64,000 nucleotides of DNA from Pyrenula massariospora (Eukaryota > Ascomycota > Eurotiomycetes > Pyrenulales > Pyrenulaceae). Below are positions 61,485-63,719 of this stretch, piece by piece (position 1 is the stretch's first letter; each line of letters begins with the position of its first letter). A program made the position numbers and the translations under genes. The notes under the pieces were generated by a model. That model was not told the origin of the DNA, searched no databases, and was given only the letters and a program-made list of their open reading frames with translations. Where the stretch lies: positions 248,001 to 312,000 of the forward strand of contig JAGFMI010000017.1 in assembly GCA_021030905.1 (NCBI GenBank), written 5' to 3'.

Positions 61485-62009
61485 TCACGAACCATTGTCT
61501 TCAACATCAGCAAAGTTCGCCGCAGCGTTCCAAACTCCCGCTTCTGCTACCGGAGCAGCCTTGGCTTCTCGCTTGAAGGGTTCCGGGTCAGGAGCGCACA
61601 CGCCGGTACCTTCCGTGGTGGTGGTGCATTTCTTCTTCTTTGGGTCCCTAGTTTCCATATTGCGCCCACGATGAATGCTGCGGTGGAACGGGAGGGGGCT
61701 GGCATCTCTCTTTGCGGGCGGCGGGTCAGGAGCGCACGCGCCCGTCCCTTCTAGGAGGGGTGTGCATTTTTTCTTTGGGTCTCGAGTTTCTATGCTGCGC
61801 TCACGATGGATGCTACGGTCGTACAGAGGAGGGTTCTGGCTAAGGCTAGGCGGGGTGATTAGTTAGGGTTGGGTGAGTGGTGTGGTTGCGTGGGGAGAAG
61901 AGACGAGAAGAGGGGCTACTCACCTTCGGTCAGTGAAGTGGGAAGCTGGGGCTGCTGTGCTAAGTGATACCGCGAGAACGACGAGAAGGAGTTGTGAGAG
62001 CTGCATCAT
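61485..62009 (-). CDS. Secreted repeat precursor, kexin-processed (RiPP-like) peptide candidate (2 exons)
   Basis: Exon 1 is 62009-61924, exon 2 61845-61485 (148 aa). The GTGAGT donor and CGCCTAG acceptor join in phase with a CTAAC branch site. The signal peptide is MMQLSQLLLVVLAVSLSTAA. The body holds two near-identical units, about residues 39-75 and 84-121. Each reads RSIH-R-x-R-x-x-ETRDPKKK(K), then C-T-x3-EGTG-x-C (C56..C66 and C102..C112, nine residues apart), then APDP and Lys-Arg (74-75, 120-121). The Lys-Arg is followed by Asp-Ala or Glu-Ala; Glu-Ala is the classic Kex2 then Ste13 trimming signal. The DNA repeats as well. This layout is that of repeat-type fungal precursors cleaved in the Golgi; dikaritin RiPPs and mating pheromones share it. 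The final product might be a disulfide loop of 11 residues. A structural cell-wall role cannot be excluded. Confidence 0.7.
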
Positions 62010-63719
62010 GGGTGAGATTTTCAATGGAAGCAGCTTGATGGATCAGGGGATGCGTGGTGCTAGTGGGTCTGCAGGACGATGGAAACGAGAAGGTCGGTGA
62101 CGTTAGCTCTTGGAGTGTTGCTCGACTCTTTGAACTTGTAGAGGAATAAGGCGGTTTTTATACACGCCTCCATTTTGTTCAGCTGTCTCACCCCTTCTTG
62201 GACGCGCAATGCATTCCCCGATATTATTCTAGCATTCGAATTGAAGTGACGAAGTTCTTCTCTACTAAGAACGGAATATGCGACTGACTTAAAACAAAGT
62301 CAAACCATCTCAAGGAGCAGATGCAAAATATCGACAGGAGACAAGGGACCTGTAGTCCTTGATCAGATGTACCAACAGCACCGTAAACGCGTAATGCCGA
62401 TGCATTCAACCCGCCACTCTTTGACCCTAGGTGAGCCTTTCAACCGCCCAGCGGTTCATGCAGAAGAAATGTTCAGGCGATCAGCATGACGACGGCGCGA
62501 TCCTGTTACACAGAAAGTGGTTGGCTGAGAGATGGCGGCGAAGTACCAGATCTGTCGTAAGTGCTTAACCAGATTTGACGGGTCTCAGTGATCTCCAGTA
62601 AGTCGAGTCTCAGAAGCTGCCTCAGTTCGGCGGTTCTGTAAATTCTGCTAGGTGCTCCCCGAGTCCCCGAAGATCGGCAAGCCTTTCTTGCAGAATCATC
62701 AATGCTTGAAAGCACACCTGGATGATTGTCGTCGTCATTCCCTAGGTGCAGTCCATATGTCTGGATTTTTAGTCTTGATGCGATGCTGTCCGGAACGCTC
62801 CAAAGGTTTCAATGTAGGTTTTCCATGGGTTGCACCACAGTTGCAGGAGCGGCGTGGTCAATGCCGCCTCCAGCAGTATTCTCTTTGCCGTGGTCTTCCA
62901 TTATGCCCAACCGGACGAGCACTTACACAATAGTCCGCCTATCTGCGGACACGTTTGCGAATAATTACTCTCTCGAAGTCGCCACAGATGAACACGAAGT
63001 CACATAGCCCAAACTTTAGGAATGCGGCCAGCGAGAGCTGAGAGATAATTTTCACAAAGCTTTTCGGTCTTCTCTAACTGCTCTGGGATAAGTCGGAAAA
63101 GACGTCAAGATACCGCTGGCGCTAAGAATGAAAGATGCTTACGGGTTGAACCTGAGGGTAAGTCTTCTTTGTCATGTCCTATAAGTTCCTTTGGTTTTGG
63201 AAATTCGATATACGACTAATTTCCCCTGTTCCTCTTTCTTTTCCAGGATGCTATCTCCTTTGGATGGTAGGATCAAAAGAAAGGTGACTGTGAATTTCTT
63301 TCTCGACAAGATACCCCTTTTGAGTGCCCGCAACTGCACACACCTGTAGTACATGCTTCGCAGGCTATAAGAACAAATTTCTCGCTTCACTGCCTGAGAA
63401 CTTCTACGAGCACAGTTTCTGTCGAGACAGGTGTCCCAATACGAAATTAAGACGAAAGCTGCTAATATTTAAGAATCGAAAGAGCGTCTATTTCTTGCCC
63501 CCTATAATACCAACTTGCACATGTCCAAATGAGCATATGCCTAAATGATCCTTGCCTAAGAAAGTGCGTGCAAGCGAGACTAGTCGAAGAATGGATGCAC
63601 CTCTATGGGAACTAGACAGTGCCAAACGACTCTTTCCTCCGCAGCCTGGTTTTTGCTCATTCCTGATCGCGAGAGTTGACTACAGTGACCGTCGGTATAC
63701 TCTACGCCAGTCGCCTATT
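62010..63719. other. Intergenic
   Basis: No supported gene. Frames at 62652-63007 (+) lack signal or domain; AT-rich towards 63200-63550. Confidence 0.4.

What the first reader, a model, noticed from the sequence alone, without database searches (positions are those of the whole stretch)
61485..62009. Candidate kexin-processed repeat peptide gene with two CX9C loops
The spliced reading gives a signal peptide and two near-identical units, each with a basic KKK run, a Cys-x9-Cys loop (CTxxxEGTGxC), APDP and a terminal Lys-Arg. The second Lys-Arg is followed by Glu-Ala. Hypervariable loop centres (PLL versus TTT) inside conserved flanks are what repeat-type precursor genes show. Two copies of a short disulfide loop would be an unusual core for this class.
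Basis: partly seen in the sequence, partly recalled or inferred. Interest (0 to 1): 0.78.

Follow-up and report, generated by a model that had tools for sequence, protein, structure and literature searches.

The report
Two-unit Kex2-processed fungal peptide precursor
A small fungal gene looks like the precursor of two secreted peptides, each with one disulfide-type loop, cut out by the kind of proteases that mature yeast mating factor; it is a plausible variant of a known kind of gene with no relative found, and its function is unproven.

Summary
The gene reads as described: minus strand, 62009-61924 plus 61845-61485, over a 78-nt intron with GTGAGT, CTAAC and CTAG signals. It gives 148 aa with a hydrophobic start and two tandem units (29 of 42 residues identical), each with a Cys-x9-Cys loop and a terminal Lys-Arg. 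The units diverged under coding constraint (dN 0.21, dS 0.86; best of six frames). Both Lys-Arg sites are followed by X-Ala/X-Pro runs (3 and 5), the Ste13 signature. No relative was found in the same genome, the protein database or Pfam. The nearest UstYa gene is 15.9 kb away with one HxxHC motif altered; two of three other UstYa loci read carry textbook precursors about 1 kb from UstYa. With two repeats it fails the published KEP threshold of three. Best reading: an alpha-factor-like secreted precursor of two disulfide-loop peptides. 'Hypervariable' loops are not shown by two copies, and two-Cys cores are known in alpha-pheromones. A divergent alpha-type pheromone is not excluded: STE2 is present and five patterns revealed no ordinary alpha-pheromone.

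The parts
61924..62009 (-). exon 1 (86 nt)
   Evidence: ATG to GTGAGT donor
61846..61923 (-). 78-nt intron with in-frame stops; CTAAC branch-like site starting 21 nt before its end
61485..61845 (-). exon 2 including stop
61953..62009 (-). signal-peptide-like segment MMQLSQLLLVVLAVSLSTA (cleavage point assumed)
   Evidence: hydropathy up to 3.2 over 9 residues; coordinates; no predictor run
61707..61832 (-). repeat unit 1 ending in Lys-Arg
61734..61766 (-). C-x9-C loop 1 CTPLLEGTGAC
61689..61706 (-). Ste13-like run after first Lys-Arg: DA-SP-LP (overlaps the first residues of unit 2)
61569..61697 (-). repeat unit 2 ending in Lys-Arg
61596..61628 (-). C-x9-C loop 2 CTTTTEGTGVC
61539..61568 (-). 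Ste13-like run after second Lys-Arg: EA-KA-AP-VA-EA
61488..61538 (-). non-repeated C-terminal tail GVWNAAANFADVEDNGS
62155..62162 (-). TATAAAAA, 153 nt upstream of the first ATG (possible TATA box)
   Evidence: sequence; function inferred

Best explanation
A gene for a small secreted precursor that matures like yeast alpha-factor. Shown from sequence: signal-like N-terminus, one well-formed intron, two tandem units under coding constraint, two Lys-Arg sites each followed by X-Ala/X-Pro runs; the genome also has a Kex2-type P-domain match and two DPPIV-type matches. Inferred: signal peptidase removes the leader, each loop closes by a disulfide in the ER, Kex2 cuts after the two Lys-Arg sites in the Golgi, Kex1 removes the basic pair and a Ste13-type peptidase trims DA-SP-LP and EA-KA-AP-VA-EA. 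That would yield two peptides of roughly 38-54 residues, each a linker rich in basic residues plus one C-x9-C loop (shorter if Kex2 also cuts at KKK), and a 17-residue tail. No UstYa-type ring closure is needed. The likeliest role is an extracellular signalling (hormone-like) peptide; this last step is a guess from the Ste13 signature.
For: Gene model and intron signals. Coding constraint between units: 29/42 residues, dN 0.21, dS 0.86, best of six frames. Ste13-like runs of 3 and 5, shuffle frequency 6.5e-5 for that summed length; 0.06 merely for both sites being followed by one such dipeptide. One Kex2-type P-domain match on C9 (57 of 86 positions, one stop inside, presumably an intron) and two DPPIV_N matches; that these are Kex2 and Ste13 is inferred. 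The Ste13 signature is said to be absent from precursors of cyclic toxins and epichloecyclins and to mark candidate hormones (PMC6339444, section 12 part 1).
Against: No transcript, peptide or homologue seen: nothing at E <= 1 in the protein database and no paralogue at E <= 10, so conservation of Lys-Arg and Cys across species is untested. Only two repeats, below both published thresholds. No Lys-Arg before unit 1 or directly before either loop. The longer Ste13-like run precedes the non-repeated tail rather than a repeat. Ala+Pro is 24% of the mature part, which favours such runs (allowed for in the shuffle). The pieces have net charge of only +1 and +2, so an antimicrobial role has no special support. 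AlphaFold2 on exon 2 alone (no alignment) is unstructured, mean pLDDT 51, uninformative.
Confidence: 0.6

Rival explanations
1. An uncut (or only pro-domain-cut) small secreted cysteine protein: the two loops stay on one chain as two small disulfide modules formed by internal duplication, and Lys-Arg matters little or only for removing an N-terminal piece.
For: Only two Lys-Arg sites; a survey of 120 secreted effectors finds putative Kex2 pro-domains in about 30% (PMC8528282, passages). Four cysteines could pair within one chain.
Against: Both unit ends carry Lys-Arg followed by Ste13-like runs, which a stable two-module protein does not need.
Confidence: 0.2
2. A divergent alpha-type mating pheromone precursor of this fungus.
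For: STE2 receptor gene present (C7:144318-145082); Ste13-like runs; two-Cys cores occur in alpha-pheromones; five DNA patterns revealed no ordinary alpha-pheromone gene (contexts).
Against: Core CTxxxEGTGxC has no Trp, no Gly-Gln and 9 rather than 6 residues between the Cys (the usual pattern is partly recalled). The patterns covered only published or recalled motifs, exact and without introns, so an ordinary pheromone gene may simply have been missed.
Confidence: 0.08
3. Precursor of a dikaritin-type RiPP cyclised by the UstYa/tyrosinase genes 13-19 kb away.
For: UstYa match at extended coordinates 77867-78265, tyrosinase pieces at 75204-76102 and a FAD-binding monooxygenase beside them, all beyond the window. 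By open frames about half a dozen genes lie between (my estimate), so under Umemura's count of the 15 closest genes it would be 'accompanied' by DUF3328; tyrosinase genes lie 7 and 8 genes from the ustiloxin and phomopsin precursors. Only 4.0% of the genome lies within 16 kb of a UstYa match. No other repeat precursor was seen in the 94 kb scanned (15 best of 1272 segments printed).
Against: Distance 15.9 kb; of three other UstYa loci read (10 kb each, chosen among strong or multiple matches), two have repeat precursors about 1 kb from a UstYa match (positions). This UstYa reads HILYC where HxxHC is expected, the second motif HLQHC being intact (criterion in PMC12048977 passages). No Tyr, Trp or Phe inside the loops. 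The Ste13 signature is said to be absent in such precursors.
Confidence: 0.05
4. Not a functional gene: a chance open frame over a degenerating tandem duplication.
For: No homologue or paralogue found, no transcript data.
Against: Synonymous excess, no stops in either unit, well-formed intron and hydrophobic start together.
Confidence: 0.07

Closest known systems
Kex2-processed repeat proteins (KEPs), Le Marquer 2019 / Umemura 2020
   Same: Signal-like N-terminus, tandem repeats, Lys-Arg at unit ends
   Different: Two repeats instead of at least three; no Lys-Arg before unit 1; no sequence relative found
Ascomycete alpha-pheromone precursors with two-Cys cores
   Same: Kex2 plus Ste13-type (X-Ala/X-Pro) signature; one Cys pair per repeat
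   Different: C-x9-C, not C-x6-C (usual spacing recalled); no Trp or Gly-Gln; long linker before the loop; the longer Ste13-like run precedes a tail, not a repeat
Dikaritin precursors (ustiloxin, phomopsin, asperipin type) with UstYa oxidases
   Same: Secreted repeat precursor; a UstYa, a tyrosinase and a monooxygenase gene on the same contig
   Different: 16 kb away, one altered HxxHC, no aromatic loop residue, only two repeats; the in-genome comparators at L056 and L058 look quite different
Kex2-processed pro-domain effectors (K2PP)
   Same: Secretory signal and Kex2 site in a small cysteine protein
   Different: Two Lys-Arg sites at repeat ends rather than one after an N-terminal pro-domain

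Membership tests
KEP (Umemura 2020; Le Marquer 2019) | Signal peptide for the ER | tested here: inconclusive
   Hydrophobic N-terminus by hydropathy; SignalP not available
KEP (Umemura 2020; Le Marquer 2019) | At least three repeats between Kex2 sites (Umemura: repeats of 8 or more aa; Le Marquer: at least three similar fragments) | tested here: not met
   Two units; thresholds read
KEP (Umemura 2020; Le Marquer 2019) | Kex2 site (KR/RR/KK) delimiting each repeat | tested here: inconclusive
   KR after each unit; only KKK/KKKK before each loop; no KR before unit 1
Ascomycete alpha-pheromone precursor | Ste13 signature (XA/XP) after Kex2 sites | tested here: met
   Runs of 3 and 5; definition
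Ascomycete alpha-pheromone precursor | Known core motif (two-Cys WC...GQ.C type, partly recalled, or PYG[LM]P[IV]G) | tested here: not met
   Core CTxxxEGTGxC, from the sequence
Ascomycete alpha-pheromone precursor | Activates STE2 | not testable with these tools
   STE2 gene present
Dikaritin RiPP cluster | DUF3328/UstYa protein with two HxxHC motifs | tested here: not met
   Nearest UstYa has HILYC and HLQHC (PF11807 match); criterion
Dikaritin RiPP cluster | DUF3328 gene near the precursor (Umemura: within the 15 closest genes, mean 3.09 genes) | tested here: inconclusive
   15.9 kb away, about half a dozen genes by open frames; genes were not annotated
Dikaritin RiPP cluster | Cyclised core, usually through Tyr | tested here: inconclusive
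   No Tyr in the loops; Tyr only in the unit 1 linker; product unknown
Any Pfam or NCBIfam family | Profile match | tested here: not met
   0 families at E <= 10 in Pfam, 0 at E <= 1 in NCBIfam, a prokaryote library

The most novel reading that the evidence does not exclude
The gene encodes a divergent alpha-type pheromone or pheromone-like hormone of this fungus: two disulfide-loop peptides of a new core type, C-T-x3-E-G-T-G-x-C, matured by Kex2 and Ste13 and read by STE2 or another receptor, in a genome where five motif patterns revealed no ordinary alpha-pheromone.
Probability: 0.08. Interest if true: 0.7.

Novelty: new variant of a known kind. Interest (0 to 1): 0.4.

Why it matters
If true, it adds a disulfide-loop core outside the known two-Cys alpha-pheromone motif to alpha-factor-like precursors, and is an example of the short precursors that surveys demanding three repeats leave out. 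Reading the culture peptides with and without kex2 would test it directly. As it stands it is an attractive orphan rather than a surprise.

Tried and rejected
That the database holds fungal proteins was checked with the neighbouring HET protein (839 hits, 120 listed, many named as NCBI fungal proteins) and an incomplete STE2 frame (1 hit of 1800 candidates, 90% identity over 74%). IMG/VR scan: 2 pattern matches, none confirmed. Pfam, NCBIfam and PDB sequences: nothing. The dikaritin reading was set low on distance, altered motif and in-genome comparators. The strand was checked because third codon positions of one plus frame coincide with those of the minus frame: that plus frame gives 25/41 residues, dN 0.26, dS 0.54 and one stop; minus gives 29/42, 0.21, 0.86 and none.

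Alpha-pheromone patterns (four core motifs, one Ste13-type spacer): matches 10, 20, 0, 6 and 13, against 6, 1, 0, 3 and 6 for the backward control patterns. In the contexts printed (one of the six loci was read through its neighbour 48 nt away) I judged by eye that none lies in a frame with a signal-like start and Lys-Arg-bounded repeats; two hits lie in long frames with 5 and 6 Lys-Arg but no such layout. The excess of 20 over 1 is unexplained. The spacer pattern is narrow: it would not match the present gene itself. AlphaFold2 on exon 2 alone gave no structure.

An earlier count said at least seven repeats for the L056 precursor; one search shows five, and five is right.

Full report
What is there. 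The window lies in an unnamed 37.8-Mb genome in 33 contigs (C8:248001-312000). The neighbouring HET-domain protein has 839 relatives; the best-scoring is from Trichoglossum hirsutum (41% identity over 96%), followed among named hits by a lichen fungus and Fusarium species, so this is very probably a filamentous ascomycete; I did not identify it further. On the minus strand, 62009-61924 and 61845-61485 join over a 78-nt intron with a GTGAGT donor, CTAAC starting 21 nt before the end and a CTAG acceptor. Without splicing the frame stops at once. The product is 148 aa: a hydrophobic start, two tandem units, and a 17-residue tail. A TATAAAAA lies 153 nt upstream of the first ATG.

Is it more than chance? 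The two units align over 42 codons with one codon inserted in unit 2 (KKK against KKKK). 29 of 42 residues are identical; the 33 base changes fall 8, 10 and 15 on codon positions 1, 2 and 3; dN 0.21 and dS 0.86. Random placement of 33 such changes kept 29 or more residues in 0.07% of 20,000 trials, and 54% of the trials gained a stop. Among all six frames the minus frame +0 has the highest identity, the lowest dN, the highest dS and no stop. The plus frame whose third positions coincide is the runner-up (25/41, one stop), so codon-position bias alone would not settle the strand; the hydrophobic start, the intron and the Lys-Arg sites favour minus.

Processing signals. There are two Lys-Arg sites, at residues 74-75 and 120-121, one after each unit, and KKK/KKKK just before each loop. 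Both Lys-Arg sites are followed by X-Ala/X-Pro dipeptides: DA-SP-LP and EA-KA-AP-VA-EA. With the residues shuffled around fixed Lys-Arg positions, a summed run of 8 or more occurred with frequency 6.5e-5; merely having one such dipeptide after both sites is unremarkable (0.06). Le Marquer and colleagues describe this Ste13 signature as generally dedicated to alpha-type pheromones in Ascomycota, absent from proteins releasing toxic cyclic peptides and from epichloecyclin precursors, and a mark of candidate hormones (PMC6339444, sections 4 and 12 part 1). The genome has one P-domain match of the Kex2 type, two DPPIV_N matches and one STE2 match.

Relatives. Nothing else in the genome matches exon 2 at E <= 10 (1 match, itself). 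The protein database gave 0 at E <= 1 of 129 candidates, although it holds NCBI fungal proteins. Pfam, NCBIfam and PDB sequences gave nothing, nor did IMG/VR.

Neighbourhood. Adding 30 kb beyond the window (extended coordinates continue the window's) shows tyrosinase pieces at 75204-76102 (PF00264), a UstYa gene matched at 77867-78265 (one splice model of 234 aa, among many that one search printed, scores 54.1 bits against PF11807) and a monooxygenase at about 79534-80943 with an FAD_binding_3 match in its last piece. These are 13-19 kb from the precursor gene, with roughly half a dozen genes between by open frames. By Umemura's count of the 15 closest genes this would be a precursor accompanied by DUF3328, as 22% of KEPs are; that speaks for the dikaritin rival. 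UstYa gives 88 exon matches at E <= 0.01 in the genome (79 over Pfam's cut-off), about 59 genes in 46 loci, and 4.0% of the genome lies within 16 kb of one, so the proximity is weak evidence. This UstYa reads HILYC and HLQHC where two HxxHC motifs are held to mark RiPP-related members (PMC12048977, passages). Two contain clear repeat precursors: L056 (five DSDAATLWDSDGVSE-like repeats, about 1.1 kb from the UstYa match) and L058 (three PHIYAEYIREAEPE-like repeats, about 0.8 kb from the nearest UstYa match). In the third, L057, the scan showed none (UstYa positions). Our gene differs from both in distance, repeat number and the lack of an aromatic residue in the loop.

Where it belongs. Umemura requires three or more repeats of 8 or more residues between Kex2 sites (PMC7329392, section read), Le Marquer at least three similar fragments; two units do not qualify, so I do not file it as a KEP, though on paper it works like one. 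Literature searches (7, 0, 2, 7, 2 and 41 papers, the last with 10 listed) showed no paper that, by title and abstract start, describes such a precursor. I read sections of two papers (PMC7329392, PMC6339444) and passages of three more (PMC9769878, PMC8528282, PMC12048977), no supplementary tables, so absence from print is not claimed. In PMC9769878 (passages) peptides from KEPs with Ste13 motifs were detected in mushrooms.

Pheromone test. Five DNA patterns gave 10, 20, 0, 6 and 13 matches, against 6, 1, 0, 3 and 6 for the backward controls; I judged none to lie in a frame laid out like an alpha-pheromone precursor. With STE2 present, the fungus's own alpha-pheromone remains unidentified, which leaves the pheromone reading open but unsupported by the core sequence.

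Verdict. A plausible real gene for a two-unit, Kex2/Ste13-type secreted precursor with one disulfide-type loop per unit; the reading frame and the signals are shown, the cleavage, the disulfides and the role are inferred. Interest 0.4.

Noticed in passing
L056:3277-3942 (+), G000:C32: Textbook repeat precursor with five DSDAATLWDSDGVSE-like cores between Lys-Arg sites, about 1.1 kb from the genome's best UstYa match; resembles by eye the conserved DADAATXYV[A/V]D motif of Le Marquer 2019.
   Followed up: partly
L058:5266-5661 (+), G000:C32: Repeat precursor with three PHIYAEYIREAEPE-like cores among UstYa genes; Tyr-containing, dikaritin-like.
   Followed up: partly
beyond the window, extended 88393-90024 (+), in L015: Aminotransferase-like open frame (name by eye) with an exact in-frame 23-residue tandem duplication, LLFEKGYHGSTISGRNRTATSIN twice: recent duplication or assembly artefact.
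   Followed up: no
G000, whole genome: 88 UstYa exon matches at E <= 0.01, about 59 genes in 46 loci; no other genome was compared.
   Followed up: partly
L014:1-375 (-): Small secreted-looking cysteine-rich protein beside the tyrosinase; continuation over an intron read by eye only; no Pfam match to its first frame.
   Followed up: no
G000:C28:328386-328460: Two identical 27-nt pattern matches 48 nt apart, i.e. a local tandem DNA repeat.
   Followed up: no
G000, whole genome: The pattern for C-x2-P-G-Q-x-C occurs 20 times against 1 for its backward control; not explained by the contexts read.
   Followed up: partly
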